Under the pieces are notes generated by a model. It saw nothing but the letters and a program-made list of their open reading frames with translations, made no database searches and was not told the DNA's origin. Positions 116-59,702 of a DNA stretch of 64,000 nucleotides are shown one piece after another. The first letter of the stretch is position 1. Every line of letters begins with the position of its first letter. The translations under genes and the position numbers were made by a program. This DNA comes from Pagrus major (lineage: Eukaryota; Chordata; Actinopteri; Spariformes; Sparidae), in contig NC_133232.1 in NCBI RefSeq assembly GCF_040436345.1, forward strand, positions 28,273,315-28,337,314, written 5' to 3'.

Positions 116-450
116 AAAGGGGCACTATGTAGTTTTGGAGAAGAAATTCAAACTCAGAAGTCTAATATTTACATGAGGAATGAGGTAATAATACAAACTC
201 AGAAATATCCATCCTTTCCATAACTGAACAAACAAGCTGTTCAGAGGAAAATAAGGTCCCCAGAACACTGTTTGAAGCTGGAAAGGTGGCAGGGTCCGCC
301 ACATATAAACCAAGTAAAGCAGTATGAAATTGTGTTCTTTAGGGTCAGTTTGTTCATTTAGCTTGTTCAGGCATAAAAAAAAAATCAGTCAGTGAAGATC
401 TTTCTACTCTGATTAAAATTTCTTCCTAAAAACTACATACTGTGCCTTTA
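116..450. repeat. MITE-like inverted-repeat element, family A copy 1
   Basis: The left end reads AAAGGGGCACTATGTAGTTT and the right end is its near reverse complement (AAACTACATACTGTGCCTTT), so this is a short element with terminal inverted repeats. It is about 335 bp and has no coding capacity. Related copies lie at 34710-35064 (opposite orientation, judged by the internal sequence) and at 59462-59702. Ends of this kind are frequent in teleost genomes. The superfamily is not assigned because no clear target-site duplication was seen. Confidence 0.75.
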
Positions 451-4450: not shown

Positions 4451-7400
4451 CTAGTCCTCCGAGGCCGAGACCATTCCGCGTTTGGACGGGGGCACCAGGT
4501 GGTCGGGCAGCGTGGGCGGCAGCTCGTGGCCCTCCAGCTTCACCTTGATGAGGTGGTTGGCTAGGGCGAACTCCTCGTCATCCAGATAGCCATCATGATC
4601 CACGTCTGCTAGCTTCCAGATCTTTCCCAGGACCGTGTTGGGCAGCTTGGACTTCAGCATCTCCTTCTTGACTGCGTTGCCGGACACTTTGCCGTTGATG
4701 GGAGAGAGGGTGTAGAAGATCTCATCATATGAAGGCTTGTCGCGACCCACCACCCACTCCATCTCGTCGATGCCTTCGCTGGCACCCTCTCCATAGCCGT
4801 GACCGAAGGGACCAGTCATGGTTCCCTCGAAGGCTCCTCCCTTGACGATCTGGCTAGGCATGGTGGCCTCTTCCTGGCGCACCATGGCCATGAGACGGGC
4901 GATGTCGTTGGCGAGCATGTCCTCCACCGCCTCCAGCAGCTTGGGCTTCAGTACTACGAACTTAGAGAAGTCCTGGCCATTCAGCAGCTCCTGAAGGGAT
5001 GGGGGGTTGAGAGAAAACAGGAATTGGTGATAGAAATAGATCAGTCGTCAATGGCTACCAACAGGAGTAGCGTACAAGAAGCAGGATTTCCTGACAAACC
5101 AGGAAAAATAAATCTCATCCCCGTCCTGGCCCATCCTGGAGGGCAAGTGCAGGAAAGAAGGGCAAAGATGTGAAGAGAGTAAAGGTTGGAAGGTCATTCT
5201 ACTCTGAACCTTTGTTTCCTACGATTTGTATAACAAACCAAGAAGTCAAACACAGTCTGATGTGTAGGCGGCTCGATTTATCTTCATTTTTTTCTTTAAC
5301 TCACCTGCATCTTGGCGAGGTTGGGGAAGTCTCCAGGTGAGATCTGGTGCTCCTTCTCGATCTTATGGTAGATCTCTCCCAGGTTGGCTATCAGCTCCTT
5401 CTTCTTGGAGTCCTTTCCAAACACACTCGGCATTTCCTTTTTCAGAGAGCTGATGATGTAGGCTTGCACCTGGACACCAGAAATTAAATGGGACACACTT
5501 TCAGTTAATATTGTACTGCGCTATTGTAATTACTATAACATTATTAGTTCAGAGATCTTCAGGGGCTTTCTCATGCTACCAAGAAAATGTTCAGTCACTC
5601 TTCACTCGAGGATTGTCTGGATGTTTGAGCTTCACTGTGTAGAGTGGTGTATGTGCAGAGTTTGAAACTAGAAGTTACTAGAAGCCTTAAATTAAAGTTA
5701 AAGAAAGTTTAAGATGTTTGTACAATTGTGTGACATCACACCTATTTTAGAAGCCAATCAGGGTCCTGTATGCAACTCCAGTATACATACAGAGAATGAG
5801 ACTTTTCTGGTATGAGAAACCACACCAGGCACAGATATCTTTTAAAGCAGAGTATTTTTGTATGTCTTAAAACACATCTAGGGGATTTTTTAAAGTTAGG
5901 AAATTACAAAAAATTTACATTGCAGCTGAGCAGAAATAACACATAATCCCTCTTCTCTTTTCTTCTCTTAAGTGTTTCAAGGTCAGTGGTTTATCAAATT
6001 GCTAAAATCTTTGCTCACTTCTGTCTTTGGTTATTTAAGAAACTAAACACAAACACAGTTGTGTAAATCAGATTTTTGTTTTTTGCATAATCCTCCTCCT
6101 GTTGAGCGGGAGGACAGGGGGTAGTGGTCAGAGAATGAGGAAGAAAGAGAGTTAAAATAAGAGTAATGAGTAATAACATGAGTTGATGCTTTTCTAGCAG
6201 CACAGCTCTATAGATGGCAATGTTGGTCTGCTGGTCGATCCACCACTTTGGACCTGATGGACACATCTCAACAGTCAGACGGATTGGTGAGAAATTCTGT
6301 GGCTGCACTGCTGAGGGTTCTATTCTGTGTACGTTTGCTAAAGAAACATCATTTTGTTACGGTCAGCCAAGTTTTTTGTAAACTTTTGCCGTTGTAACTC
6401 TTGGAGGTCAGAATCTGCACATTTCAACGACGACATTCCAACGTCCGACTTTGACTTGAACGTAGCATTAGTCTCTTTTCTACTGACCTTAGCGAGTCGA
6501 GCTCGTTTGATGAGGTCATTGAGTTTGCGTAGTGCTGCATTACGCGGCAACGACTGGATGTCCAAGAACAGGTCCTGCTCCTCTGCCTCAAACAGCTTTC
6601 TGTTGTCTGGGACCAACAGGGGCTGGGCCCAGAATGACCCGATGTATACGCGCACCACCTGGAAAAAAGTTAACACAAGTAAATCATCACTGTACATCAG
6701 GTTAGACTTTACTGCCCACACCCACACGAGAGAAATTCTTTCACAGGTCGCATTCATGACACTGCAACGTGGCTAGAATGAGTAAGCAGGCACACAGGAT
6801 GTGTGACAATGCAATACAGGACAGTGAGGCTGACAGTGACACAACAAAAACACTTTTTAAATATATCAGTTCTTTGTTTCACATCCTGTGGAGAGGCTTC
6901 ACAATATAATGCACTGTCAAAGTCAATGAATAATTCTCTACATGATCCAAAGGTTCCTCTGGAATCAGTTTATGAATATGGCCCCGGATCAAACATTAAC
7001 TAAACAGTCAAGGAAACATCATAAGACAAGCTGGGTCACACAGTATCAGGTTATAGGGACTGAGACAGATGGTGTAAGAACTTCCCTTTCATTATCTCCA
7101 TATATTGGAGTTTTTACACATTTTTTGTTACAAAGACAAACTGAGAACATTAGCTCAATAATATTAAAACCTGTCCAGATCTACCTCGGACTGAATCGGA
7201 TTGAAATTTTGTCCATTTAAATACTGTGTTGATTACACAGAAGCATATATGTGAAAAACAAATGCTTTTTACCTCAGGCGTATTAATGATTTTTCCCAAA
7301 GACCACATCAGCGCTCCGTAGACCCTCATCAGCTGCTGAGTGCTGATCTGGTCTGCTTTGTTCAGCACCACGCGCATTTTGTCCTCGTGGTTCTTCAAAG

Positions 7401-10400
7401 CTCGGATCACCTCGGAGAACTCGTCTGAGATGTCTAGCTTGTGGGCGTCGAACAGGAGGATGATGCGGTCCACACGCTCTGCGAACCACTCCAGCACAGC
7501 GGCGAAATCGTAACCTGGAGAGAGAAAAGTAGAGGGGCTGATTAAAGATGGGAGCTGCACACACACTGCTGTGTCCATTAATGACTTGCTGTGTTACTGC
7601 CCTGTTAGTGACTTAACAGTCGATTCACTTGATTTTTTCTCAGTCTGAACTGACTGACACAAGCTCAAAAGAACATTAAAATGTATTTTGGCTGGATAAC
7701 TGTCTAACATTTGTTTTCCAAAGGGATGCTAAATGGCCGTTACACAATGTGGGTGAGAACAGGTAGTATGTAGATTTAGCATGCAATGTTTTGTCAATAC
7801 ACTTTCTTTGTTGTCTAAATATTGAATTTGACAGTTGCTCTGAGTGTATTTGGAAGCCAGTACTGACATTAATATTTTGGAGTTTGATAGTAACCGTTTC
7901 AACATAAAGCAACAATCTTGATCCCTTAGATCCGTTTTTCAAAGACACATTTGAAGCCGGACTTTATACAGTTAAAAAAACTGAACTCGCAATGTGCTCT
8001 CAAAACCAGTTTAGCATTTCTGGGATACAATTTCTTGTTAATTATCGGTGGATATTTACATCTATAGGATATATTCACAGTAAGTAAGTTAACCTGGAGC
8101 CTCATTTAAAATAATGTTTTTAGATTTGTACTTACTTGATCTTAACATCATTCCTGACTGTGTGCTTATGTTTGATTCATGAAAGATACTGAGCATAAAA
8201 AACTTTTCTTAAGCAGGTTTTAAGAATCCTATTTATAACTTAGGCACCTGTGAACTATGACTCTCAAATCAGCTTAAAATGACTAGTCATTTCCTCTCGT
8301 ATCATTTTGTCTGTTCAGGAATAGCCATGAAGAGAAAATCAAACTTTGTGGAAGACAAGATCACAGCGATGATAGAGGAAATTGAAGCCAGGCAACACAT
8401 ATCACTCAGTGGTGTCAGTCGTGGGTTGACAATCAAAGCCAAACACGCAGCTTGGGAGTGTGTTGCTGCTGCACATTTTTCACAAAACTCATGTAAAGTT
8501 TGCCAAAGCCTCGACACACATGGATCCCAATCTGTTATACCTCCTACATAACCAGCTGGTAAATCACTTAAGTCTGGTTTAGAGACTTTGCTTAGAGAGA
8601 AGATCATTTCTATATCAGAGTACGGTTCTATAAATAACTACTCATATGTGGTTTTCTACTTAAGTCATACATAAAATCTAAACTGATTATAAGTCTCTTT
8701 TATGAATAAGGCCCCTGGATTAGTAATTTCTTTTTATTTCTTTGAGTTTTGAAGGGAGCTTGCTGGTTTGCAATCTTGTTAAATGTGTGACAAACAAATT
8801 CTGTGTATATCTGAATTATAAAGATCAGACATGAATCCCTTCACAGTACGTTGCCTGATGTTTCTTGAAGTGATAACTCGACCTTTACATGTTTTGATTC
8901 TGGCTTTCCTTGTACGGGTTACTGCACAGTGTTCACTGATATCTCATGCCTATACCGCAGCAGTTCAGCTCTGGAAAGGATCATTTGTCAATAGGTCTCT
9001 TAGTGTGGAGCATAATGGAGTCCTTATATGAAACCTTGTTGGTTTGTTAATCAGCTGAGTAAGATTCAATTCAGAACAGAGCTGTTTCAGGCCTCGTCCA
9101 CACGTACACGGGCATCTCTTAACACAAAGCTTTTTTGTGTTTTGGTCTTTCAAACACACGTTAACAGCGTTTAAGGTCACTGAAAATGGAGCTTCAGGAA
9201 AACTCTTTAGGAAAAGACATACACATTTGCTTAAAATTGCGTAATTGGGCTTTTTCAGTGTATATAGCACCAATGGCAAAAGTGAACTCGGGGTATGTGT
9301 AATGATATTGGAGCTTACATTGAAAGAATGGATGTTATATTGTGCATATTCAGAAAGACAGGAACAAGCATTGGATTTCTTAAACAGTGCTAAAATGCTC
9401 GTCTGGACAGATATTGTTGTTGTCTTAAACCAAAAATACCCGTGTACGTGTGGACTCGGCCTTTGTTAATTTGAACTGTTACAGATTCAGTCAATGTCAA
9501 TACCACCCGTGATAAAAAGCTCTTATTGTGAAGAGCCTCACTGTTTGCATGGACGGTGATAAATTCCTGCTCTGATCAGACGAGAATCACCAGTGAAACA
9601 TAAACCAGTACAATGGTTTCCGCATTCATGTCAGTTTGGAGGCATATCTGACATTTTGCATCACTGTTGCACTTACAAACAGCACACACAGCACACTGGT
9701 CTGGAGAAATACAAGAGTTCAACCTGACAAAGAGCTCGATGGCTTCAATCAGTCAATAAATTGTGTTGGAGCAGGGTTAATTGTGGGTTCTCTATTCATA
9801 TCGATCCAATAATGTTTAGATAAGAGCTTTCAAGAGTCAGGGCTTTCTGCACTGGTTACATATTAACTAACTTTACTGAGACAGCAGGAGAGGCATTTGA
9901 AGGTAAAGTTTGGACCCTTTTGAAAAAGCCTGACAGCGTGTAGAAATGACCTCTATCAGGGACTGTTTTCAGAAATGTGCCCTATAAACAACAAGCCTGC
10001 CAGAAATGACAGATAAAAAAGAAGCAAGAGGGAAAACATTTGAGACAGACTGTAAAGACGAGGGTTGAGATAAAAAAGCAAAAGCATTGCTGGAGTGCAG
10101 ACATTCACTGTACTACTCACTTCCTTTAGTTATTAGAGAAACAAGGGGTCTAACTCAAATTACATAAAACAGGCCTTTTTCTCTCTGAGCCTCGAGGAGC
10201 TGGGGAGGAAGTGAGGAAGAGAGAATTATGGTTTTGATTAGAGTCAGTGGATCATCTGATCAGAGAAGAATGCAGTTGCTCTAAACGCTCATCTCGGCCG
10301 TCGGACAATCAGCGCCAGATCTGCTGCACATGCATTCCAACATGGCCGGCTTTTGTCTGTGTCTGAGCACATGTATACAAAAGAGAGACACAGTCGGTAG

Positions 10401-13400
10401 ATGGAGAGTGAGACTAAATGCGACGGTGATATAGATAGATGATGGAGGAGATGGAGAGAGGAGAGAAAAGGGAAAGAGAAAGGGAGAGAAAGATGGGGGG
10501 GGGGTAAAAGTGAAAGTAAAAGAAAAATATGAATGTAACTAGAGATGGACACAGAGGATGGATGAAGGAAAACACCCCACGAGCTGAAAGGAGTTCTTGT
10601 CCGTTTGTGTCCAAGTCGTCATGTGAAAGTAGGGAGGGATAAAAGGGGAAATTTTAAGTCTCAGATCCCTGTGGGAGGACGCAGAGGACATTTGCTCATT
10701 CTTTCTTTAGTCTGTTTTTAACGCTCACGTCAGGGAATCAGTCAGAGAGACAGCTGCTCAAGCTTAGACTTACTTATAGCACATAGCATCAACAACTGCT
10801 ATGTCTCTACCATGTGCAGTGATACACCCACTCACTTGCTCATGACAGATTTAGATAGGCCTCAAAATCATCTGCCAATCATTGAGAGAGAAGTGGGAGG
10901 ACCAGGCTGTGGATTTATTTTTCTGGACATATCAGAAAACACATCGTCATTCAAGTCTCCTGGATAATCAAAGGAATAGTTTTAGTTGGGATTTAGATGA
11001 GATCCTTACCACTCTCATGTTAGTACAGTAAATATGAAGCTACAGCCAGGACCAGATTAGCTTATTTTAGCATGAAGACTGGAGAAAGGGGGCCTTGTTT
11101 TTACTAAACTACAACCAACAACCGTATCAATGTGCAGAAGGAAGGTGCGTCTACTCGAGGACAAGAGGCTCATGCTTGTAACAGCATCGGATGTAAACAT
11201 TAATGGTGCCTCCTCAGCCACGCTGTAATGTTAGCTAACTGAGTTTGCTAGCGTCTGGTCCATGAGTAGATGCATGCTTCCTTCTGTGCAGTGATACAGA
11301 GTGAAAACAGTTCCTACATTAAACTGCTCACAACAAGGTCTCATTGTCGTGAGGATTATCATTTTATACATGTGTTAATTAGTGAGTTTAAAAGGTACTT
11401 TTGATTTTGTGTTTCGTTGAGTTTTTATTTGTCGGCTAGCTGTTTCCAGTCTTTATGCTAAGCTAAGCTATGCTATTGTCTCTAGCACTAGCTTCGTATT
11501 TAGCATAAAGACATGAGAACGGTATTAATTTTCTCATCTAACTCTGGGCAAGAAGTCAAATAAGTATATTTCCCTAGACGTCAAACCTTGTCATACACTG
11601 CTACAGAGCTATGTTATGGCCACATGTTCTAGAAGTTTCAACAAAGCTTCTGAGAGGTCTTTTTTCCCCCGTCAGCAAAATTTGCTGAATGCCAATGAAC
11701 ATTCAACGTTCACGTCCGGTCATCAGCAGTGATTGTGGGAAAGCCGCCAACTAGTTCTGCAAATTCAGTTTCATTATAGTTTTCATCACTTCATGGTTCA
11801 TAAAGGAAGAAGCACTGAGCCATACTTGCTGACTCAATCAAAAATAAATCCACTATCAGAGTATTATGCAATGAAAAAGGGTGGTGTCCATGTAAGGACA
11901 ACTATATTTCATTGTTTCTGAATGTAAAGCTCATTTAGACCTGTAGTAGTACAGGCAGTACTAGTATGCAGAGCACCTCCACACGCGTGCACACACACAC
12001 ACACACACACTCACACACATGCCCGTCACACTTCAGCAGCACAATCCAATCGGTCCTGTTTATATATGCCACAGTCAGTACAGTATGTCTGGGTACTACA
12101 GTATTGTGTTTATACAGAAACAGTTACGATGATAATGTGTGTGTGTGAGAGTGCGTGTGAGCTTGATAAAGAGTGTGTGTCTTTGACAGTAAGACTGTAT
12201 AAGTATGTATGTACAGAAACAAAACTGTCTGAGGTATGAGGCGTCAGATTTCCTCTGCTCCTCCTCTCTGTGGACAGGGTCACTTCGACATGAACCTATG
12301 TTTTCATTCACACACACACTTTTTCTGGTTTCTTATCAGATGCCACTTATTTACGCTTGTATGTTTACAGTCGCATCTTTGGCCTTTTCAGTGTCTTTGG
12401 CAACCATCCGTACTGTGTCTGTTTCTCCTATGGCTTCTTATAAGAACAGCAACTAACAAATACTTTCATCTATAAAAAGGTGCAAAATGCCTGTAAAAAC
12501 CTCCTGGGAAAAGTAATGACTTCAAATAGCTTGTTTGTTGCACCAAAAAGTCCAAAACTCAAAGATTTTAAATTTATAATGAGAAAAGTAGCAAAAATCA
12601 AAAAGAAAAACTGTCTTAAATGATCAAATAATTATCAAAATAGGCTGACATTTAAGCTCTACGTCATAGTTTTCATACTGCTGTGTCTCGTGGGAAATCA
12701 GTCTCCAAAGAGCAGATTAACTGACTGTGTACGAGCTCTCTGTCCAACATAAGCGGCATTGGGGGGGTGGGTGGGGGCAGTCTTGGGAAACTCTCTGCAA
12801 TGTTTGCCATTTTACTCCACATCCTTTCTCTAGAGTACACAGAAACCCTTCTGCATGTATGTGCGCTTCCTCTTAAAGGGGCTCAAGTCAGGTAAAAAAA
12901 GCAGAAGCTGCATTCAGCTCCACTGTTACCTTCTGCTCTGCATTCTGTCACATCATCAAAAGTAAAACTGTGGATGTGGCATTTCAGAAGTGACCCTGCA
13001 GGTCACAGAACCGTGTGGTGAAATGGATAAAATTATGAATTGATTTATTTCCACAGAGCACAGGGAAATGACTCAGATATAAAGTGATGAATGAGGGCAC
13101 GCAGCTACATAGCGGAAATATTTTCGACCTCTTTTAATATAACCCTTGCTACAAGCTGAACTGAAAACAGTAGGAAAGTAAAAACCAAAAAGAGGGAAGG
13201 ATGTGAAAGAAGACGGTGCGACAGGAAACCAAGGTGCAGAGACAGAAAATGAAATTGAAGGGCTTTGTGCCTTCTCTTTGCTACTTTCAAGCTGTGAAGG
13301 CCTCCAATAGATTTACATGACCTGTTTGGTTAGCGCTGACCTGAGGGTGTTAAGAGTTAAATACGGGTTTGACAGCGCTATGAGCCGGACTGCTGGAGTT

Positions 13401-16108
13401 GACTTTGTAGAGCGCATGCCAAACAGAAATACCAGAGTGAGACTTAAGGACAGGAAGAGCATGTAGGTTGTTTTATCATGTTTCCTTCTTATATTTGAAC
13501 ATGTGGCTTCCTGTGGGTTTATTTTGCATGCACGGAAGGCTCTCTGTTTAGCAGTATTTCACACTTTTTGAGCAGGCTGGGCGTGGTTCTGTTAAACAGT
13601 AGTAGTACTAGTGAGTAGATGAGTGAGCGAGTGCTTAAAAAAAATGGAGGTGTTTACGTCAGACAGACCTCTGCTTATCCTCTGTTTCTCCCCGGACAGG
13701 ATTCCAGGAGTATCGATGATACTGATGCTCTCCAGGACAGGGTTAGGCATCTGGGCACACATGAACCTGGGTGAGAGAAGAGACAGTGCAGAGGACAGGG
13801 AGGGAGAAACAGAAAGTAAAAGAGAAAGAGAGAGTGGGTAGAGTGTGGGGTGTAGGGGCAGAGAGGGAGGGTGAGAAATACCAGTCGGGTGAGTGTTTAT
13901 ACATAAGCTTGGCATTAAACAGACATTATTTTGGAGGTTTGCAGTATCAACCTTCATGCTCTCAGGCACTAACATTAGTGAAACACCCTTGCTGGGAAAG
14001 ATACACAACTAAAACACAAAGCAGCAGTGGGAGGAAAGGACAAATGTGGGTTTCACGAGGTCCGTGCAATGACAAATTGTTCATGTTGATATAATTAGTT
14101 GATAATAGTAGGTAACATTTAAAATAATAGTGCCACACAGCACGTCAATAGGGTTGTTCTGATACCTATACCAGTATTGGAAGAGCCTCAAAAACTGCCC
14201 ACAATGCAGGAAATTCTATTGATGAGTGAGGACGTCTATGCACTGATATGATACCACTTAATTTATTTATTAGAAACAGGACCCAGCTACCTAGACCTAG
14301 CTTACCAGTAGCGTCCTGTACACCTGTAAACAACTTAACTGATTTATTTTACTGCACAAGTAGCCAATATCCATAAACAACACAACAACAGCAAATTTAA
14401 AGTAGTATTAAGCCTTTTGTAACTCAGTGGCTGAGTTGCATTTTGGGTAATGTAGGCACCAGGTTTTGAAAAGCAGACCACTGTTGGACTCAATTTAAAA
14501 ACAAATGATCAGAATCGATACAGTAGAACCAGAGATAACATCTTTTATTTCCATACTTTCTTCTTCCTTTTCAAAACCTGGTAATCTGCCTCCTGACAAC
14601 ATCGGAGGCAGATTACATGCAGCTTCCTCTGGAGCCAGCCACTAAAGGCTTTATACCATTTTTTAAAATATATATATGCTGTAGTACTCCTCACAACCTG
14701 TAAACACTTAAAGTTGGTGGAATTACCCTTTAAGTCCAAGGTGACTCTTCAGATTGCTTGTACTGTCTGACCAAGAGTAAATAAATGTAAGATATTCAGT
14801 TTAATATCACAAGAGACAACTAAAATCCCGTAATTTTTAAGCTGGAATGTTTTTTGTTTGAAACTGCCTTAAATTAACTTATTGATTAATTGTTTCAGCT
14901 TTTGTTCAAGATTCAAGATTCAAGATTAACTTTATTGTTGACATGTTTTTACTAATAAAACAGTACAGGACTACATGCTCATAGTCAGGTTTATGTCAGT
15001 GTGTGTGTGGGTGAACGGGTGGGGTGGGTTTCTTGTTGGAGGTCACCATTGATGTAAGAATGTAAGGGAAACACTTGGACAATACATTAAAAGTTATGAA
15101 CTGCAGGCCTGAGTCATTCCCAACGCAACATAATTCAGTACACAATGGTCTCCTTGAAGCCGGGTTACTGGTGTTTAAACTTTAAAAGGGGAACGCTGCT
15201 CTCAAGACACACACACACACACACTTTCACACAAACACAGACAGATATACACACAGTATAAAGCGAGTGAGGATGAGTGGTTTTGCATAAACCCACGACG
15301 TCCCACTCAGGACAAAGAAGGGGATTGTTAAGAAAGCCCACAGCTCAGAGTACTACTTCTCGCTCTGCTGCCCTTTTCACTCAATCTGAACCGATACTCC
15401 CAACATGAGCTCTGAGGCACCGGGTCATAAGACCAGGAGAACCGTGCTTTTACATTCCTGCTGCAACCACACTGAGGGTGCACACACACACACACCAAAC
15501 CCTAACAGAGATCCCATACCTCACGCAGGGAGGAAAAAGGAAAAATCCAAGGACAATGAACAAGTCAAAGAAATATGAGAGAAGGGAGATCCTCTGAATA
15601 GTATAACATTACAGTAACAGTGACTGCCAACGATAACAAACATGCAGATCTTTCCACTCCCTCTCATAGATGATGGCGTATGATATCCTGTTGGAATTTT
15701 GGCAAAAGGTTTTCCATTGAACTATCTACCCCTACATTTTCCACATAGAGCTTGTAGGAAAAAATGCTCTGATGGCCTCAAGCAGGAATTCTTAGAAACA
15801 GAGGACCCTACCAGGAACAGGGGCCCCAAGAGCCCTGAACTGAGACCCTTCGCTATAGGATTATGTCTCGACAAAGTGAGAAACCCATCCTGGCTGTGAG
15901 GCCGCTGTCCTGGCGTGAAGACCACGTCAGACCCCCATGTGATTGGAGGTCAGACTCCACCTCCTGACCTATGACCTCCCCTCACATCGTAACCTCAACT
16001 TCCTGCAGAGAAGAGGAAACAGGGCGGCTGTTGCTAGCACTGAAGATGTGGACAGGGAAGTCACAACTGTGTCACTTTTCCACGTTTGCTTCCTCTAAAA
16101 TCTTCCCT

Positions 16109-16139
<31 letters not shown>

Positions 16140-19100
16140 AAATTATATACATATCTTATATATTTCTATCAAAACACGACGTCCTCAAGTGTATTTGTTG
16201 ATGAGCTCTGTAAGGATGCATATGTGTCAACCACTATCTCTGTAAAGTGCAGAGTCAGTGTCCCGGAATAACAGGCCATGAGCAGGACAGGACGGAGCTG
16301 GACAGTGTGGGCCGGGGTGGGCCTGTGCGGAACTTAAGCTTTGCTGACTAATGGTTTTACTGAGTAATGGCTTACAGAGAGCAGAAAACACACTGAGGCC
16401 CTCCGACTGCAATGGTATTTTAACTAGAATGCAAAAAAAAAAATAGGCAGGTTTATATGGAGGTGGAAGAAGTCACTTTTCAGGAAACATATGTGGTTTA
16501 GACCTTCTGAAACCAGGCTTGAAAAAAAGAAATTAGGGACAGACTGATTATCAGGGCTGATAATCAGCTTTTTGCATTTACTGGCTCTCACTTTTTTGTG
16601 TCCAATTGGCACTAAAATAAACTAGAACTGTTCCGATTCCGATACCAGTACTGGAAGTGCCGCCAATACTGCCGAAAATGCAGGTATCGATATCAGCGAG
16701 TCGTGAGTCTATGCACCGATCCGATACCACGAAATTCAGATGCAGCTTCCTTTCTCTGTCTGTAGTTATCACTCAATGTCCCGCCCACAACACTATTTGA
16801 TTGGTTACACGTCACAACTAATAGCCTTTCAACACTGAAAAATATGAATCTGCAAAGTACCTGGTAACTAAAGTTATCAAATAAATGTAAAGGAGTGGAA
16901 GTATAAAGGGAAGGATCCAGGAATGTTTTCTCTTTCTTTAACAAAGGGTGTTTTTTGACATTATCATTAATTTCTCAGGGAATAATGCAAAGGTGTATTT
17001 AGGTAGCTGTAATCTGAGTGAGTACAATTTCTTGCAGATCTGGATTTTAATTTTTTCAGCCACTGTACCGTAATAAATAGGGATAGAGACCTTCAAGTGA
17101 CGCCAATATACAGCTGAGAAATGGGGATTCAGAGAGATATTAATAGTTTTTCCAAACAAATATGATGGATCATATCAGCAGCTTCACGCTTTGCAAATGT
17201 TTTAAATCTTATACCCAATGAGATCTGCTGAAATTATGATTAAGCAGTTATGGGTGGTTTGAAATTTAGAGTGATACAGGGCTTTGTAGTTTGATATTGA
17301 ATTATGCTTGATTGAAATAATAGGAACTGTTGGGCCTTGGTGGATGTATTCACTCTACTGAGTGCCATTCTAGTTTTACTGCAAATGTATATCAGTACCA
17401 AAAATCAGTCATTAGTCTCCGTGATTACTAATAATTTGTATTGGCCCTGAAAGAAACATATTGGTCGATCCCAATAAAAATAATGGAAAAATGGTGAAAA
17501 TTAGCAAGCTAGTAGACTACACCAAATCCAAGAGCAAACTGTATGTGTATGCATCAGATGATTTCTGTTTACTCTCCTCATAAATAACTGATTACACTGA
17601 GGGTAAGTCCTCTCTGAGGCTGGTAGTTAAAGGCTAATCTGCAGGTTGAATGACTATGGTTAAAGAGCGACACACTGGAGCTGCCATCACGCTTAACAAG
17701 GTGTTGTGTGCCCCCCTGACATGGTATTTTCTCCTCCACCTTTAAATCAGGTAATCAACTATCTGATCCTCACTATCTCCAACCTGCTTTCATGAGCAAA
17801 AACACATTCAACCAACAGCTGAGGGCCAATCCAAATACTTTTGGCCTCCTGAGGGGAAAGTGGAAAACTGGCCCTGTCTGGGCCAAAAACAGCCTGGTTC
17901 CAAATGTTTGCCTGGATCTGGTTCTTGACAGAAGTTTTATCAACAGTAGGCCTGCTCGAGGCAAAGTGCCATCACAACTGATTAAATATGTACTGGGTCG
18001 ACACAAACACAAAGCTGTTCAAACAGATTGTGCACCTGCTTTTCTCATCCACACATATTCTGCTATGTACGATCATGTGAGCCAAAGTGTGACCTCTCCA
18101 GCCTGAATATGCTCCTGAGACAAAGATGCAGACTGAATTCAAAAGAGAACCACAGGTCCCATGATACCACAGGATTGTCTCCAACAGTTTGACAAATTAT
18201 GCTACTATGGACAATAGCCTTTGTTTATCCACAATCTTATCTGGTTTCCCCTCAAGCCTGTAATAAACTCCAGAGGGGTGAATCGTGGTCTATGAAGTCA
18301 AACACCTCTACCCCCCTTCAAGTATTATCTAAACTGCATGACTTTATGTTCCTCAGTTTGACTGATGCTGTTTGGCAGACGCTTCCACTCATTCAAGATA
18401 AGGCAAACACTCCACATAATTAAGGGAAGGGACCTCAATAGAAAATATGGGCAATCGGCCTAACTGTGTGTCAACTTGCAACATATGGCCAGACAACCCA
18501 CTTGATAATCTGAAGCTAATAACAGATTAAGATAAACACTGTCCACAAGTTAATTTGTGTGTTCTTTGTCCATCTGTTTGGCTGGCTATCCCTCTGCAGG
18601 GTGACACCACACGGCCACTGCGGAAAGAGGAGATATATTCCCACATCCTCTACAGGAAGTGACACGATCAGCGATTGGATGTTAGTCATCTGATGTCATC
18701 ACAATAGCTTGGCTTAAGATGTTTTAGCTTTCACCAAGCATCGTCACATTGGCTCTGACTCATAGTGCCTTGCTTGTGCAGTCTCACCTTGCACTCTTTG
18801 TTTGAGAGAAGCTAATTTCATAATCTCAATGATTCACTGGTAGAGCCTGAGCAAAACACTGGATTTTGGGGGGCTAATCCTGACACCAATGTCAGGGAGA
18901 AAATAATTCTGATACATATATCAGTTGATTTTCTTATGAAAACAGAATATATGCATAAACACACAATTTTTTTTGCAATAATCCCTCAACTGTGTTTATC
19001 AAACACAAGTGCAGGCAGGATATTTACAGTTCAACAATATACTTTATTGTCCTAAATGACAGTAAACTGCACTTGATAATGAATAGTTATAAAGCCTCTT

Positions 19101-20769
19101 TTTCTACATAATGTTCTGGGGAAAAAAAGTTTTCATATTGGTGCATATTGCACAATATACTTACAGTTTTTGATATATAATAGGCCCATATCATTTTATA
19201 TTATCACCTGATCAAATTATCAGTTGGGCTCTTGATACTGGCAGTCTTTCCACTGTCCTTCTCTGATCTCTCTTGGTTTCAAAGTACATCACCAACCAAG
19301 CTTTCCCTCTATACTATTTGTCTGTTTCACTTTCTCTTCTGCTCTTATTTTGCTGTTGGTGTTTTTGCCAGGTGTTTCCCCCCCACCTGAGCAACGCTGT
19401 AGTTCTGACTCACTACAGGGTTTTTTTCCATGAGAACATTTTGACTTCAGGCTGAATTACAGACTTAAGTGTCAGTCCAAGTGATTCACAAAACTTCAAG
19501 AAGTGCAGTGGGAGTTTCCACAGAACGTCTAGATCATCCGGCATGTGGATCAAAATCCAATGAGCTGAATCATGTCTTGACACTAACTATAACCTTAGTG
19601 AACAACTGCTGACTCAATGAAACAATACTACAGGAAGAGACACAGTCACACAAAAACCTTTAACCCTTTGTGATAAGATTTCACAAGGCCTACGCACAGG
19701 TAGGGAATAAGGGAGTTGGCTCGTCGGCTTTTACTGATGAAGTAACACTTATATGACCGGGGGGTACAAAACTTATGGCACCTACATCCGAGGACAGGAC
19801 AAGGTCAGCTTGTTGCCTAGCAACATCACCTACAACTATTTCTATACTCAAGGGGCCACATTTGACACTGGGACAAAACGATCTGTCACCAGTGACCCTG
19901 CCGGACGGTATTGGTAAGGTGTGCCTGATCAAGGGCAAGTTGCAATGTTAATTGGTAGGTTGTGGTCCAAAGTGAAAGAACTTCATACTCAACGGAGTAA
20001 GGCGTTGGAAAGCACCTTTCCTGTCATTTGCTTTGGCATACACCATTGACACTTAACATCCACATTCTCTCAGGGTGATGAAAGACACTGGTGGGAGCAT
20101 TGTGCAATAGCACACCTTGAAAAAGAGTGGTAACAAGTAAAGACTTGTATGTAGGCCATTTAAATCATGGGTGATGTGTTGTTATGACACGTCTCCTCAC
20201 AACCAGCTGTATTATAAATGACATTTCAAGACAAGCATAACGTAGATATTGATATTAATCCCATTCACACATTAATGAATAAACGCAAGGATCAGACCCT
20301 ATAATCCTAGTGCATTACATAGTTCACATTGCTCAGTTTAAGCTCTTGGATGTGGTCTGGGGACTTGGCAGTGGCTTTACCTGTTGAGGAACGCGTTGCC
20401 GAAGGCGTTGAGTTTACGGAAGGGCTTCTTGGGGTCGACAACCAGCGCGTTACCCGGCACCACCCCCTCCTGTTCACCGTGCATCACCGCGATGAAAGAG
20501 TCCGTGGTCGGCTCGGGGCCAATCCGCATACCGGGGAAGTCCTGTTCCATGAGGTGCCGGATGAATGTAGTCTTCCCGGTGGAGTACTGACCCACCAGGA
20601 GGAGCATGGGCTTGTTGTCGAAGTCGGCATCTTCGAGCGCAGGAGAGTGGAAGTCGTGGAACCGATACGTGTCCTCCAGCGGGAACAGTTTGGTCCGGTA
20701 AAGCCGCCGTAGCCCCTCCGACACGTTCTGAAACAGCTCCGGGTCCTTCTTCATGTTTTTCCTGAACAT
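4451..20769 (-). CDS. ehd1: EH domain-containing protein 1 (dynamin-like ATPase)
   Basis: The protein binds ATP, oligomerises on endosomal membranes and drives exit of cargo from the endocytic recycling compartment. Coding exons in transcript order are 20381-20769, 13669-13766, 7273-7514, 6488-6658, 5305-5469 and 4451-4990. All have GT-AG junctions and matching phases and give 534 codons plus TAG, the same length as human EHD1. The P-loop GQYSTGKT is at residues 60-67, DTPG at 148-151 and NKAD at 214-217. The helical region follows, then a C-terminal EH domain with GKIWKL and the EF-hand loop [12 protein letters not shown]. The start is the only ATG before an in-frame upstream stop. The N-terminus reads [11 protein letters not shown] instead of the usual MFSW type and is about 5 residues shorter; the C-terminus has 5 extra residues (GMVSASED after PPSKR). 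EHD3 and EHD4 are close relatives. EHD1 is preferred from overall identity and from the neighbouring mir-194 and 11q-type genes. The ehd1a/ehd1b assignment is open. Confidence 0.93.
8092..8719 (+). mobile_element. Harbinger-like transposon with decayed Myb/SANT ORF
   Basis: The ends are imperfect inverted repeats (left ACCTGGAGCCTCATTTA; right end, reverse-complemented, TCCAGGGGCCTTATTCA). They are flanked by TTA at 8089-8091 and 8720-8722, the 3-bp duplication typical of PIF/Harbinger. Inside, plus-strand frame from 8330 reads [20 protein letters not shown], then SGLT-like [19 protein letters not shown], which resembles the Myb/SANT-like DNA-binding protein these elements encode. The rest of that protein and any transposase are absent. 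It lies in ehd1 intron 2, antisense to ehd1. Confidence 0.7.
8782..9089 (-). mobile_element. Non-LTR retrotransposon endonuclease remnant
   Basis: Minus-strand translation gives [18 protein letters not shown] and then, after a frameshift near 8963, [15 protein letters not shown] and [15 protein letters not shown]. This order and spacing match the C-terminal half of the apurinic endonuclease domain of L2/CR1-type LINEs (TQLI..PTR, D.SDHC.V, R....F). The 5' side is cut off at 9089, where an inverted-repeat element begins. It lies in ehd1 intron 2 in the same orientation as the gene and is not functional. Confidence 0.65.
9090..9464. repeat. MITE with GGCCTCGTCCACACGTACAC ends
   Basis: The left end GGCCTCGTCCACACGTACAC is mirrored at the right end by GTGTACGTGTGGACTCGGCC, giving terminal inverted repeats of about 27 bp with few mismatches. 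The element is about 375 bp, non-coding, and directly abuts the LINE remnant. This suggests that it inserted into, or next to, that older sequence. Confidence 0.8.
10970..11592. repeat. Foldback repeat with AAAGGAATAGTTT ends
   Basis: The left arm contains AAGGAATAGTTTTAG, GAGATCCTTACCACTCTCATG and TTAGCATGAAGACTGGA. The right arm contains their reverse complements in degenerate form (CTTTATGCTAAGCTAAGC, CATGAGAACGGTATTAATT, TCATCTAACTCT). This is a well-known kind of teleost dispersed palindromic repeat. It lies in ehd1 intron 2. Confidence 0.65.
11990..12019. repeat. (CA)n microsatellite
   Basis: A CA dinucleotide run lies in ehd1 intron 2. It is potentially length-variable. Confidence 0.9.
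14153..14530. repeat. Dispersed repeat sharing sequence with 16626-16900
   Basis: Both places carry a GATACC..TACCAGTA(C/T)TGGAAG segment followed by AATGCAGG and GCAC(T/C)GAT(A/C)(T/C)GATACCAC at similar spacing. They are therefore two diverged copies of one family, both in ehd1 intron 1. The ends are approximate. Confidence 0.5.
15206..15224. repeat. (CA)n microsatellite
   Basis: A short CA run in ehd1 intron 1. Confidence 0.85.
16109..16136. repeat. (TG)n microsatellite
   Basis: About 14 TG units in ehd1 intron 1. Confidence 0.9.
16626..16900. repeat. Second copy of the GATACC dispersed repeat
   Basis: It shares CCGATACCAGTACTGGAAG, AATGCAGG and ACCGATCCGATACCAC with the 14.15 kb copy. 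The downstream part (GGAGTGGAAGTATAAAG) also matches a piece of the dispersed sequence seen at 49330-49615. The ends are approximate. Confidence 0.5.
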
Positions 20770-21348: not shown

Positions 21349-21979
21349 TAGGGGTCGACTGATATGGTTTTTTTGGGGGGCTGATACTGATTATTGGAAA
21401 TCAAGGAGACAGAAAACCGATATTTGGGACCGATATTCATTCGCAGTAAAAATGAATCTTTTTGTGTCAAAACTTCTAACTACCAGTGATGAAATAAATT
21501 GAGCACAATTTACTCAAGCACCCTTCTTAAGTATAATTTTGAGGTACTTTATTTGAGTATTTCCATTTTCTGCTACTTTATGCTTCCTCTCCACTACATT
21601 TATTTGACACATTTAGTTTCTAGTTACTTTGCAGAATCAGATTATTTGATTGTTTATAGGCTCTTAATTATGACGTGTTACCAATCAGATATTGTTGTGG
21701 GCAGGACATCATGTTGCATCAGCGCGACAATAGCACATTTTTAAATTAATTCATTTTATCAGCTATCTGACAGAAGAATTACAGACACAGATAATCGGAA
21801 AATGCTGAATATCTGCCCCGATAATGGGCCAGGGCCGATAATCTGTCTACCCATACTGAATACTTTCACTCCACTTCATTTATTTGATAACTTAAATAAG
21901 CAAATTCAGATCATTTAGTGCTGATTGGCTACTACTCGTGGCCCTGATAATCTGCCAGACCGATAATCAGTCTACCCCT
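21349..21979. repeat. Inverted-repeat element with TAGGGGTCGACTGAT ends
   Basis: The left end AGGGGTCGACTGAT is mirrored at the right by ATCAGTCTACCCCT, giving an element of about 630 bp. Internally it contains GAGTATTTCCATTTTCTGCTA-type sequence that also occurs, in opposite orientation, at 49330-49615. It lies just upstream of the ehd1 promoter. Confidence 0.6.
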
Positions 21980-22780
21980 CTTTTACACAGTAATATTGTG
22001 TATTTTCCAGCCACAATGTTTCAGTTATTGACCCTCAAAATATAAACAGTTCTATTTTATGGGTATTAAAAAGAAAATATACACATGAATTGACCTTTTA
22101 TTATAAAAACATAAATAATCATGTATTGATTATCTGTCTTAGGCCAAACATCCTTTCACAAATACTTTTTTCCATACTGAGGTATTTAAGTTTCTATGTG
22201 ATATACTTTGTCTTGGCCTATGGAAACTATGGAAACTCCAAGCATCCATTCAAGTCAGTGCAACTTCCAGTAACTTTTTACCCTTACCAGAAATGGCCCT
22301 TCAGGGTTCAAATGTGGTTTCGGTTTTCATTGGCTGTATCTAAGTACACACTGATATGGTCATAATGACACCTTTCCTTTTGCTTTCTGTTGCCTCTGTA
22401 TGTAATGTTAGTATGTAATGTCATTCATTCATTCATTCATACTCTTAACATTGAAACAGAAAATGTCATTTATCCATCGGGGCGTTGTATGCAAGCATTT
22501 TAATGTTGAATTTGTTAAATACATTTCTGATATTATATATTTTGATATACAATTTATAAATACAGCTCCACAGGTTTTATTTGTTTTTAGTTTTAACTTG
22601 CCTCTAGATCTAAAAGGCCTGTAGGTCATGACATTTAAATAAAAGTAGTCATTCATTACATTTCTTTCTCGCACTCAAACGATATAATGATAAACTAAGG
22701 TGTCCCTCAGTGTCATCTTTGTGTTCTCTCTGCACAAACAGCTCAATAAAAACACAGAAAAACAGCTATTAAGGGATCAG
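21980..22780. other. Intergenic stretch, no gene seen
   Basis: AT-rich sequence with an (ATTC)n run near 22421-22438. No exon or structured RNA was recognised. Confidence 0.5.
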
Positions 22781-22782
22781 CT

Positions 22783-22788
22783 TTTATT
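22783..22788 (-). terminator. Candidate poly(A) signal of the mir-194 primary transcript
   Basis: Minus-strand AATAAA lies about 150 bases downstream of the mir-194 hairpin on the same strand. It could end the primary microRNA transcript. The link is inference. Confidence 0.35.
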
Positions 22789-22933
22789 TGAAAGAACAGC
22801 CTGTGTAGAAATAAGCATAAAAAGAGCACGGAATGAAAAAAACAACAACAAATAGAAGTTATTTACTGTACACAACCCAGTATCTTTTGAACGTCAGATG
22901 TGTGAACTGTCCTAGCAGCTTTTCGATGACAAG

Positions 22934-23018
22934 AGGTGTCCCTCCACAGATAACAGCAGCTCCACTGGAAGCCAGAGTTTTTCCATATGGAGATGCTGTT
23001 ACAGCTGGTGAGACCCAC
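22934..23018 (-). ncRNA. mir194: microRNA precursor mir-194
   Basis: The 5' arm (22982-23003, minus strand) matches human miR-194-5p except at positions 11 and 18, and the seed GTAACAG is intact. The 3' arm (22947-22968) matches human miR-194-3p of the MIR194-2 locus except at position 8. The arms pair with each other across a short loop (AAAACTCTGGCTT), and the flanks GTCTCACCA and TGGAGGGAC extend the stem. In human, MIR194-2 with MIR192 lies just upstream of EHD1 on the same strand, the same arrangement as here. miR-194 is known in gut, liver and kidney epithelium under HNF factors. A 62-codon ORF overlapping it is incidental. Confidence 0.9.
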
Positions 23019-26000
23019 AGAAACAGCACAGCTGACGTGGAGACCATGAGAACGTGGAGGTGGTGGGATTCATTTCACCAAACAGTTTTCTGCTGACTTG
23101 AACCATTCAGTGATACAAATAGACATCAGTGGCCTGTAAGCGTTTGACAATATTTATTAGGCGTGATTGTAAAAAACATTTTCCCTTTTGTGATTATGCT
23201 CATTTGACAATTGAAATGCATTTTAAAAATGCTTGTCATGCCTTCGACGAGTGCGATATAAGTGTGACTTTTTCCCAGCAGCGGCCAGATTCATACAACT
23301 ATTGTCACAAAATCTTAACAAAAGTGCAAAGATAAGACTTTCATAATGTTACATATTTAAACAACATGGCACCAGTGTGATAAAAGTTTCCCGCATATGT
23401 GATAATACTGCCCTCTTTTGGTCAAACCTCACCGATTACATTACATTATTTTACAGCTTATTCTTTGTTATCTGAGTCCTCATGTAATAATACCACCCAT
23501 CCAATAAAGAGAGATATCATTTACCATGTCCTCATGACTCCCTTTTTTAGTTTTTACTGCTTCTAAGTAACAGGTTAACCTTATGACCAATAAAATCAGC
23601 GTCATTCACTCAATCAAAGTGGGCAACGAGTCAGGCGAAAGCATCATCCCTGCAAATAAATCGTAACCTTTAGTCCGTTTAAATTAATCTTTTACATACA
23701 GGCATTGATATGGCTTTGAGCACAAGTTGTAAACTGAGCGTGCATCATTTCCTTCTGTCCTCTCCTTAGTTTACCAGAATCTCCCGACTGAGCTTTGACC
23801 CTTAACCCTCTCTTTCTGTAACAAACAGCGCCATAAAGCAATTTAAGGGTGTACTAAAGAGACCTTCACCCCGACTGTCTCCTTCGACTTTGCCCACCTA
23901 GGTATATTTTTTAGCTGATTACTCCACAGTGAAAATGTTATCAGTACCAACCTCAGAGCTCACGTTATAATGAAAGTGTTTATGATGAAAGCACCTCAAT
24001 ATAAAGTCTGGACGGAGAATCTGGTCAGTCCTGCATCAGGAAATGAAGTTTGAGAAAGAAATATGATAAATTAAATGTAGACATCTTCACTCTTACAATT
24101 CTGACAGAAGTTGGGTTAACTTTAGAGACAAAATCTACCTTTTCTGCCCTGAACAGATGATATTTCAGTCTTAAAATCTCCTTTTGAAAACAGTTATTAT
24201 TGTTTACAGATGGATATAACAGGTTTAAGGTTTTTGAGGAAGGAGAACCACGAATGAAGTGTGAAATTTGATTTTAGCCCCATTAACAGCTGTGCAAATT
24301 GATTTCTCGGTTAACACAATCATCCAACAACTTAATTTACAGAATGGAAGCATGTTTGTTGCCTAGAAAGCACTAATTTAATCAGGAGCTCAATTCGGTT
24401 TTGACTCAATTAATGAACTTTCCCAATAGCCACTTTTGGTCTCTCTTCACAGCCGTTTAGTTCATTGCTCAAAGGAGGATCTGAGTGACTTTTTACTATT
24501 TGAAGAAATGAATGCACTTCCAGTTACTAGGTGCTCAAGTTGCTAGCAGAGTGGGTGCACAGTTAATATGTAATCAATACAAAACACAAAACAGATTACA
24601 CGATCATCTTGGTACAAATGCCGTCTGTAAATGAAACGTAAATTTGCTCAAAATGATGAAATCAAACAGTTTACTTGATTGTTTTTCAGTTCATGAGCCA
24701 CATCGAATTAAAAATTCATACTCACCAGGAAAATACTGCAAATGAGGCTCGTTTGAGTCATTAATTCTGTGAGAAAAGTCAGAAAAGTGGAAAAAGAAAG
24801 ACCAAATGAGAGTGTGAGGAAAAGCAAGCCAAACAAATACATGGTAAACAGGAGAGAAAAACAGATAGTGGGCGAGCTTTTAAAAGAGAAGTCAGACAGA
24901 AGAGAGCAGGCTGAGACTGAAGTCTGTCCCGGGGGAATGGTGGACTCCGTGGATGAGGGCTGCTTAAGACTGCGTAGGGGAGAGAAAGAAATTAATCATT
25001 ACACTTACTGTAAATATGTAACAGACCCAACCTGGCCATAAAACTCAGCAAATTGCATTGTGTTTGAACACCCACAGACACACAAGGATGTATCCCATCC
25101 TCACACAATCATCACAAGATGCAGAACAGCCAATAGAAACACCATCCGGCCTTCAGAGCACTTAAGCCTCTTCACACATTTAGGCCTCTTCATTCAGTGT
25201 AATGGCTTCCTGCCTCGGCTGTCTGGTTCACAAGAACTACATAGAGATATACTTTTCATGGGGCAGACGCAATTATAATTGATTGATTAAATAACTAAAT
25301 GGAGAGAGAAGTAATCGCAGCTGATGCACACAAGAAGCATAATCACTTCTCTTTCTGTCTCTTTAGAACCTGTACTTGTTTGATTTCCACATAATTTAGA
25401 GCAAAGGTCCCTAAAAATCTGATATAACTATCAAAACTTTTATGACATCTACTCTTTTGACCTTTGCTCATTACCTACCTTTGTCCTTGTCGTAAAGTAA
25501 GGGACAATAAAGTCCTGAGGTAGCTGTACTGGTCTATAAAAACAATAAACATTAGCAGGCTAAACTATATTTCTGAAAGGCAGTGGAGTCAAATAATCGA
25601 CATTTACTTCAGTTCTGTACTTAAAGAGCCTAAATTTAACAGTGATTGAACTTTACTGGGTTATTTCCATTTGTGGTGCTTTACAATACAGCTCCTCTAC
25701 ATTTCATAAATTAATGTTGTATATCACATACCTTATTTTATTGAACATTTTTATGGTCTCGCTACTAAACAGTGCATAAAGTCATTAAGATTGACTCTGA
25801 CTCAACTAGCTACAGAATTAAAAAGCTGCTTTTTTACATTCTTGCATCAATAATAATCTAATTTTATAGACTATTTATAACTATTAGACTCAAACACACA
25901 TTTTGAGTTTTCACAGAGAATGTCTGAATAATGTTAAGTGTCATGATTATAATGTATGGTGGGTCTCAGATATATTAAACACATACATTTACAGATACTG

Positions 26001-34441: not shown

Positions 34442-37400
34442 TTAGCTGGGAGGATAGTAGCCCTGGTTGTAGTTCCAGGTGTTCTGGTAGCCGTAGCTGC
34501 CGTACTGCGGTTGCTGGAAAGAACCACAACAAACAGGTGATGATAAGTTTCACAGAGCATCTCAAACTGTTCTTTGTCAAAATGAACCCAACCTAACCCA
34601 ACTATAGAGTCGGTTTACTTTCAGTGAAACCATTTTAGATACATATGGACCCTGTTTTAGTTTACATAATATATAATTTGTAATAATAATTGTAACAACA
34701 GACCAGAATAAAGGTGCACTATGTAGTTTTGAGGAAGACATTGTAATCAGAAGAGAAAGATCTTTATTGACTGATTTATGCCTAAACAAACTAAACAAAC
34801 TCTCTTTGTTTTGATCACTGAATAAACAAACTGACCTTAAAGGACAACACAGTTTCATACTGTTTTACTTTGTTTATATTTGGCGGACCCTGCCACCTTT
34901 ATAGCTTCAAACAGTGATCTGTGGATCTCATTTTCCTCTGAGTATAGCTCGTTTGTTCAGTTATGGAAAAAATATTTTTGAGTTTGTATTATTACCTCAT
35001 TAATATTGTAACTATTTTAATTCTGAGTTTGAATTTATTCTCCAAAACTACACAGTGTGCCCTTGAAGGAAAAGTAAAAAGGTTCAGATAAAAATTTAAC
35101 AAGACAAAAGATAGAACACAAAATGTCAATATAAATAAATACAAATAAAAGGATAAAAACAATGAAAAAAAAAGACCACATCACATTAGACCAAATAAAT
35201 ATAAGAAGAAGAGCAATAAAAAAAGAAAACAATCTTTATGACTTTATGGACTCTGGTTTTCCTGCACCTCATTAAAGCAAACTTCCTCCTCATTCTTTCG
35301 CAGTGTTGGTTCATTTTTCATCAAAACAGCCATCTTCAGTTTTGAAAATATCGCCGTCTGTGTCAAAATCTCAAATCCTACCTGGTACCAGTTGCTGTAT
35401 CCTCCGTAGCCGGCCTGTGCGCTCACGTCTGCGCCCATCACAGGTGGAGGGGGTGTGGTGATGGGGACGTGCGGCATGGTAGGTGGGGCCGTTGCAGACA
35501 CGGCAACAGCAGAGCCGTCGTCACTTTTGCTCAGCTTCTCCGGGTCCTCATCCCTATAAATCACATTTTTACAAAACAGAAGCATGCATGATGTTCCCAT
35601 TCATTACTGATGTTACAATACTAACATGTACATACTTCATTTTCATACGTTGAACTCATGAATGGGTTTTTAAAGAAAATTTGATGTAGGAGCTGCAATT
35701 ATGTCAGTTTTCAAAATGTTGCTGACAGAATAACATTTAAAAGCTTTCAATTATTCTAATAGTGCTGAAAAAATCAGTGTAATAACTTGAAACCAGTCAG
35801 TCATACTAATTATGACGTTCTTTTATTTTTTTTTTACTTGATTAACTTTAAGCTGGTTCTTCCTCCCCCTCTCACCCGTTCTCTGCTCCTCTCTTTGTTC
35901 CACCGAGCTCCTGCAGCAGCTTCTGGTGCTCGTCGTACACAGACAGCACACTGTCGAGGACAGACACACAGTGAGGAACAAAAAGTCGATGAATGGTTTA
36001 CGTGACCCATTGGATTTAAGATATCTGCCAGTAAGACTGTTGTTGACCTCTGACCTCTGGATAGAGTTGCTGTAGTCCTCGGCGAACTGCAGGCCTCTCT
36101 GTGAGAAGAGGATCTTGGTGTCTGGGGTGAGGGGAGCTGCCAGGGCTCGGGTCACACACTCCTGCACCGCCTCAGCTGAGGCCCAGGGGTCCCCCGACAC
36201 CTCCAGCTCCAACAGGTTCATGTGTAGTTTATCGTTATCCTGAGGGAGGACACATAGCCAAACTAGATTCATTATGCGTCTTCAGTACAGAGTCTTGGCA
36301 ATTTTAATTTGCTAGTACCACACAAAGTAAATGGGATCTGAGTCATAGTGTTCAGCATATCATATTTTTATTTATTTATGTGAAAAAACTATCGACCATC
36401 TTGTGGAGCAAAGTCTCCTCTAGGCGGATCACATTCGTGTTATGGTTGAGAGTGACCGTAAAATAAAACACGCCCGCCCTGCTGTTGCTACACTACAGTC
36501 TCTATTCCTCACTGATTTTTCGTGGATTTTGAAAAAAAAAAAAACTCTCATTTAAGACTTGTATTTCAGAATTGTTGTGGTGGATTTATATCTGTGACTC
36601 CTTCCTGAAAAATAAAGAAATTCCAGCGACTGGTACGTAAATTGTCTCATAGAAAATGAGCAGGATTTTGCAGCTGAACTACACCGACATTCTTTAACTT
36701 TTAAATTAAAAGTTTTTTGGACGAGAAGATGAGAGGGCTTTGATCAAAAGCCTGTGATTTTCATATTAGCTGAAATATTTGCGGCTGTTAGTAACTTTTC
36801 TCACCGGACTGATCTCCAACGCCTCCTGTAACACCCTGCGGGCTCTGCTCGGGTTCCTGCCCAGTTTCAGCAGCAGACGAGCCAGCTTGATGGAGTAGAA
36901 GGCGTGTAGCGTGGGCTTCTCTTTGGATTCGGCCACCGCCTCCCGCAGCAAGGCCTCTGATTGGTCCAGCTGGCCCGCTCGTCTCTCTAAAGCCGCCCTG
37001 CGAAGACGGACCACTGCCAACCCTGGTAGGGTTTTCTCCAGAGCCTCCAGCACTCGCCGGGCCTCGGTTAGGTCACCTGATGGAGAGGATGAAGGAGTTT
37101 TAATGAGTGGGGTGGATGCAAAATATGGAGAGAAGCCTCTAATCGTTTCCTTAAAAGGACTCTGATGTGAAGTTTTGAGGCTTACTCCATTTTTAGAAAG
37201 ATACCCTGTGTGTAATGAAGTAATATTTTTCCATGTTTCGTTTGTTCTGTTGCACGTTGAAGCGCAAGATACACTGTCCTGCAGATGGTTTTTACACTAT
37301 TCCACTGATCTACATGCAGCTGTAATGCACCAAGAAACACGGACTGATTGAGGATTGAGATTGAGAAGAATGTTGATCAGTGTTCCAAAAGCTGAAGAAG

Positions 37401-59461: not shown

Positions 59462-59702
59462 TAAAGTTGCACTTTGTAGTTTTGGGGAAGACATCTTAAT
59501 CAGAAGAGAAAGATCTTCATTGACTGATTTTTTATGCGTCAACAAACTCTTGGTTTTCATTACTGAATAAACCGAGAACAGCTTGTTTATTCAGTTACAG
59601 AAAAAATAAATATTTCTCATTTTGTATTATTACCTCATTAATATTGTAAATATAAAAATTCTGAGTTTGAATTCGTTCTCCAAAACAACATAGTACCTCT
59701 TC
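59462..59702. repeat. MITE-like element, family A copy 3 (internally deleted)
   Basis: The left end TAAAGTTGCACTTTGTAGTT continues AGATCTTCATTGACTGATTT as in copy 2. The right half (GTATTATTACCTCATTAATA) also matches copy 2. About 110 bases of the interior are missing. Confidence 0.75.

What the first reader, a model, noticed from the sequence alone, without database searches (positions are those of the whole stretch)
22934..23018. mir-194 hairpin upstream of ehd1, without a recognisable mir-192 partner
Both arms of miR-194 are nearly identical to human (two changes in 5p, one in 3p), and the locus sits upstream of ehd1 on the same strand, as MIR194-2 does in human. In human, MIR192 lies within a few hundred bases downstream. 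Here the next 400 bases on that strand contain an AATAAA but no TGACCTATGAATT sequence, and I found none elsewhere in the window. Fish have duplicated ehd1 loci, so this could be a copy that kept mir-194 and lost mir-192. An open reading frame annotation here would be wrong.
Basis: partly seen in the sequence, partly recalled or inferred. Interest (0 to 1): 0.75.

Follow-up and report, generated by a model that had tools for sequence, protein, structure and literature searches.

The report
Solo mir-194 gene beside fish ehd1
This is a well-formed microRNA-194 gene lying just upstream of ehd1 in a fish genome; its usual neighbour microRNA-192 is missing here but sits beside a second microRNA-194 on another chromosome, an ordinary-looking result of gene duplication and loss.

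Summary
The hairpin is real: Rfam mir-194 at 22937-23016, minus strand, 73.1 bits, E 1.7e-15, one stem-loop, 2.2 kb upstream of the ATG of an ehd1-like gene on the same strand. No mir-192 is found in the window or in 30 kb beyond it on the ehd1 side. The same genome shows one other mir-194 locus over the cut-off, on contig C13; there mir-192 follows 86 nt downstream at 80.1 bits, so the search can see a fish mir-192. The two mir-194 copies share 20 of 22 bases in each arm and one pairing register; their flanks align no better than shuffles. "Second ehd1 locus" is not supported: tblastn finds no ehd in 220 kb around the C13 cluster. Solo mir-194 is not new: a 2008 zebrafish table lists mir-194a with mir-192 as a cluster and mir-194b in no cluster (PMC2427041). 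Expression, other mir-192 copies and other ehd1 copies could not be tested.

The parts
22937..23016 (-). mir-194 precursor hairpin
   Evidence: Rfam RF00257, 73.1 bits, E 1.7e-15; fold -39.5 kcal/mol, z -4.17
22982..23003 (-). predicted miR-194-5p; differs from medaka miR-194a-5p at positions 11 and 18 only
   Evidence: ends taken from recalled human mature form
22947..22968 (-). predicted miR-194-3p; the predicted duplex with 5p leaves a 2-nt 3' overhang at the base
   Evidence: ends recalled
22783..22788 (-). AATAAA 148 nt downstream of the hairpin, possible poly(A) signal of the primary transcript
   Evidence: sequence and pattern scan; function inferred
4451..20769 (-). ehd gene, ehd1-like, six coding pieces located, downstream of the hairpin on the same strand
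   Evidence: Pfam EHD_N, Dynamin_N, EH; EH region 235.5 bits to EHD1, 201.4 to EHD4, 153.8 to EHD2; piece positions

Best explanation
The window holds a working, intergenic mir-194 gene, one of two found in this fish genome. Both arose from one ancestral mir-194/mir-192 unit next to ehd1, most likely through the teleost genome duplication. The C13 copy kept mir-194 and mir-192 but has no ehd found beside it; the C18 copy in the window kept mir-194 and ehd1 and lost mir-192. Mechanism, inferred from the family: RNA polymerase II makes a primary transcript that ends shortly after the hairpin, Drosha and Dicer release the duplex, and miR-194-5p with seed GUAACAG represses target mRNAs, here without miR-192 from the same transcript. 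Shown: hairpin, arms, seed, neighbour gene, no mir-192 found nearby, intact cluster on C13. Inferred: transcription, processing, targets, and the genome duplication as the cause.
For: Family score and fold. Two mir-194 loci over the cut-off in the genome, C13 82.2 bits and C18 73.1 bits. mir-192 80.1 bits, 86 nt after mir-194 on C13. 20 of 22 bases shared in each arm; 5p bases 1-10 identical; three of the four differences fall on positions unpaired in both and the fourth turns G-C into G-U; the pairing register is the same. The 13-base loops share 6 bases (my count on the letters), and four flank comparisons are no better than shuffles, so the arms look kept by selection. In sheep mir-192 is adjacent to mir-194 and lies between EHD1 and ATG2A (PMC4958965, passage), so an ehd1 neighbour with both miRNAs is likely ancestral. 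C13 carries an estrogen-related receptor and a TREK/TRAAK-type channel gene about 13 kb apart; recalled tail motifs make these esrra and kcnk4, neighbours on human 11q13.1 near EHD1 (recalled).
Against: By the calls alone the C13 genes are not settled: receptor pieces score ERR1 104.8 against ERR-gamma 102.3 and ERR2 106.5 against ERR1 100.2; channel pieces score slightly better to KCNK2 than to KCNK4, 86.3 to 84.9 and 90.4 to 88.3; the adenylosuccinate synthetase is nearer isozyme 2, 59.8 to 52.6, whose gene I recall on human 1q44. tblastn of the C13 frames of 45 residues or more against the window plus 30 kb gave only short recurring pieces that look like repeats, no shared gene. No small-RNA reads were seen. 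The genome search for mir-194 scored 56 of 108757 candidates, so a third weak copy could be missed.
Confidence: 0.62

Rival explanations
1. The C13 cluster is the fish counterpart of human MIR194-1/MIR215 on 1q41, so the two fish loci date from the early vertebrate duplications, and the ehd1 copy simply lost mir-192.
For: A DUSP10-looking piece (by eye; Pfam DSPc) and an adenylosuccinate synthetase nearest isozyme 2 lie on C13 near the cluster; channel pieces score marginally better to KCNK2; human 1q41-1q44 holds such genes (recalled).
Against: The channel's C-terminal tail and the receptor's last residues look like recalled KCNK4 and ESRRA; the two genes lie about 13 kb apart, close neighbours as I recall for 11q13.1.
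Confidence: 0.22
2. mir-192 was never at this place: a stretch with mir-194 alone was copied or moved next to ehd1.
For: No trace of mir-192 or of shared flanks was found.
Against: mir-194 next to ehd1 matches the mammalian neighbourhood, which a random insertion would not reproduce.
Confidence: 0.08
3. The hairpin is a decaying, unexpressed copy.
For: Score is lower than that of C13, 73.1 against 82.2 bits, and its fold weaker, -39.5 against -45.2 kcal/mol; no reads available.
Against: 5p bases 1-10 equal to C13, same pairing register, loop and flanks diverged while arms did not.
Confidence: 0.06
4. mir-192 is missing through an assembly fault.
For: Only one assembly could be read.
Against: The window has no N and the contig is 38 Mb long in a 25-contig assembly.
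Confidence: 0.02

Closest known systems
mir-194 family, Rfam RF00257 (human MIR194-2 at EHD1, recalled)
   Same: Hairpin, both arms, seed, position upstream of ehd1 on the same strand
   Different: No mir-192 partner found within reach
Zebrafish mir-194b
   Same: A mir-194 gene outside the mir-194a/mir-192 cluster; in no row of the table of miRNAs within 3 kb of one another (PMC2427041 Table 3)
   Different: Its position and sequence were not seen in any call, so orthology is not shown
mir-194/mir-192 cluster of fish (zebrafish chr10; pikeperch; Atlantic salmon; here C13)
   Same: Same mir-194 family; C13 copy shares 20 of 22 bases in each arm
   Different: The C13 cluster has mir-192 86 nt downstream; the window locus has none found

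Membership tests
mir-194 (RF00257) | Covariance-model score over the curated cut-off of 52 | tested here: met
   73.1 bits
mir-194 (RF00257) | Seed GUAACA | tested here: met
   Seed as printed for zebrafish miR-194a/b; 5p bases 1-10 equal to C13 copy
mir-194 (RF00257) | Single stem-loop with both arms in the stem and a 2-nt overhang at the base | tested here: met
   arm ends recalled, not measured
mir-194 (RF00257) | Small-RNA reads with fixed 5' ends | not testable with these tools
   No reads on hand
mir-194/mir-192 cluster | mir-192 hairpin on the same strand within 10 kb | tested here: not met
   None among 9 matches up to E 10 in the window, which covers more than 10 kb on both sides; none among 10 up to E 1 in 30 kb further downstream; positive control 80.1 bits on C13
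EHD1 neighbourhood (as in mammals) | ehd1 downstream on the same strand | tested here: met
   no EHD3 chain is among the hits, so ehd1 against ehd3 rests on recalled sequence
Teleost-duplication pair | Shared neighbour genes at both loci | tested here: inconclusive
   No shared gene seen between C13 220 kb and C18 94 kb; both look like parts of human 11q12-q13 by recalled gene positions

The most novel reading that the evidence does not exclude
The solo copy has a new role: freed from miR-192, it is driven by its own or ehd1-linked control elements in other tissues, and its strongly paired opposite strand (41.9 bits, -33.5 kcal/mol) also yields a mirror miRNA.
Probability: 0.05. Interest if true: 0.5.

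Novelty: new member of a known kind. Interest (0 to 1): 0.2.

Why it matters
It gives a clean natural case in which miR-194 and miR-192, normally made from one transcript, are uncoupled: one genome with one joined copy and one solo copy. That allows a test of whether the joint transcript matters for dosage in gut, liver and kidney. Otherwise it mainly matters for correct annotation of this locus.

Tried and rejected
Relic of mir-192 near the hairpin: rejected. Local alignment of recalled human arms to 22000-23100 gave one result that looks positive, 10 bases of 192-5p at 22085-22094 with 0 of 50 shuffled queries as good; but it is on the opposite strand, the medaka form gives 1 of 50, the 215 form 3 of 50, the full hairpin 9 of 50, and the best 192-5p match within 10 kb gives 7 of 50 and in the whole window 9 of 20. 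Twelve bases like 192-3p at 22214-22225, minus strand, had 2 of 50. The fish mir-192 from C13 against the 600 bases downstream has 84 of 300 shuffles as good, and against the window scores 24 with 46 of 60 shuffles as good, while mir-194 from C13 scores 64.

Precise deletion with readable edges: rejected. Four flank comparisons (downstream 600, spacer, after mir-192, upstream 300) have 176, 96, 175 and 74 of 300 shuffles as good. A forced end-to-end MAFFT alignment of the two loci was made too; it carries no chance level and I draw nothing from it outside the hairpins.

Fish relatives in other collections: exact scan for the 5p arm gave 0 in viral contigs and 0 in genome contigs. The bacterial promoter and terminator scan has no bearing on an animal gene. 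A paper search for the window's 5p letters listed one lung-cancer paper, seen as a listing only.

Solved-structure searches to name the C13 receptor and channel: not decisive.

Papers with no useful passage: PMC6408482, PMC4159003, PMC4647824, PMC4774146 (passages); PMC3728263, PMC3005926, PMC4177693 (no occurrence of the terms); one paper not held.

Full report
What is there. Rfam finds one match over its cut-off in the 64-kb window: mir-194 at 22937-23016, minus strand, 73.1 bits, E 1.7e-15. The strand folds into one stem-loop of -39.5 kcal/mol, z -4.17, with 0 of 200 shuffles as good. Predicted 5p is 23003-22982 and 3p 22968-22947; the predicted duplex leaves a 2-nt overhang at its base (ends recalled from human). 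The plus strand also scores, 41.9 bits, below the cut-off, because the stem is nearly palindromic.

Surroundings. On the same strand, 2.2 kb further on, lies the ATG of an ehd gene (ATG 20769, stop 4451). Its EH region scores 235.5 bits to EHD1, 201.4 to EHD4 and 153.8 to EHD2; over the full length the best chain is EHD4, as neither a full EHD1 nor an EHD3 chain is among the 16 hits. I gave 15 of the 63 listed open frames of the window to Pfam; besides ehd they show pieces of a UBX protein, a PRP39-type HAT repeat protein, a glycosyl hydrolase family 31 member and integrator subunit 5. In sheep, mir-192 is adjacent to mir-194 and lies between EHD1 and ATG2A (PMC4958965, passage), so the place of mir-194 is the conserved one. 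That the host is a bony fish of the percomorph type is my inference from gene content and the 25-contig, 786-Mb assembly; no call names the organism.

mir-192. A permissive Rfam scan of the window lists 9 matches up to E 10 and none is mir-192; 30 kb beyond the window on the ehd1 side list 10 up to E 1, none mir-192 (315 bases between that stretch and the window were not read). The scan can see a fish mir-192: on C13 it scores 80.1 bits. There are no N in the window.

The second locus. The window is C18:28273315-28337314. A mir-194 search of that genome lists four matches: two over the cut-off, C13:1655595-1655675 (82.2 bits) and the window's own (73.1), and their two opposite strands below it (56 of 108757 candidates scored). 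On C13, mir-192 follows 86 nt after mir-194 on the same strand. Within C13:1565000-1784999 tblastn finds no EHD. Between the two loci the arms share 20 of 22 bases each; differences are 5p 11 and 18 and 3p 10 and 19; 5p 11, 5p 18 and 3p 10 are unpaired in both, and 3p 19 changes G-C to G-U; the register is identical. Outside the hairpins, four flank comparisons are no better than shuffles. Such a pattern is what selection on a miRNA leaves.

Origin. C13 carries, by eye and Pfam, a dual-specificity phosphatase, an estrogen-related receptor, a two-pore potassium channel, adenylosuccinate synthetase, a kinesin and a ligand-gated channel. Recalled tail motifs make the receptor ESRRA and the channel KCNK4, neighbours on human 11q13.1, close to EHD1 (recalled); solved-structure scores do not settle this and in part lean to other members, and the synthetase is nearer isozyme 2, which I recall on 1q44. 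No gene is shared by the stretches read at both loci. The teleost duplication with reciprocal loss is therefore the likeliest, not a shown, history.

What is known. Zebrafish: miR-194a and miR-192 are listed as a chr10 polycistron, and miR-194b is in the same seed family but in no row of that table (PMC2427041, parts 1 and 2 of 3 of the main text read). Pikeperch: miR-192 and miR-194b are called clustered, and miR-194a is in the table of larva-enriched miRNAs (PMC10778745, 12 of 19 passages shown); the letters a and b are thus not used alike. [quoted passage not shown] None of the passages read says where the solo gene lies. A fish ehd1 locus with mir-194 alone was not met in ten paper searches; these cover open-licence main texts only, one search showed 20 of 343 papers, and of the listed papers I opened passages of a few. 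Fish miRNA databases and supplements were not searchable.

Verdict. A true mir-194 gene, a new member of a known kind, whose missing partner is best explained by duplication and loss. Ordinary, with modest value as a natural uncoupling of miR-194 from miR-192.

Noticed in passing
window 22934-23015, plus strand: The opposite strand of the hairpin also folds (-33.5 kcal/mol) and scores 41.9 bits to mir-194, under the cut-off; the C13 copy does the same with 49.4 bits.
   Followed up: partly
L015:2962-4902 (C13:1667961-1669902), minus strand: A 647-residue stop-free frame that looks like a piggyBac-type transposase by eye, 12 kb upstream of the mir-194/mir-192 cluster.
   Followed up: no
window 21835-21977: CCGATAATC-type words between mir-194 and ehd1 (two 18-base copies 94% alike, 125 bases apart), perhaps a degraded mobile element.
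   Followed up: no
window 122-324, 34858-35058, 59571-59702; L029 near 5511-5734; C13:1603083-1603325: Short repeat shared by several places in C18 and C13 (55 to 88% in translated matches), probably a dispersed repeat.
   Followed up: no
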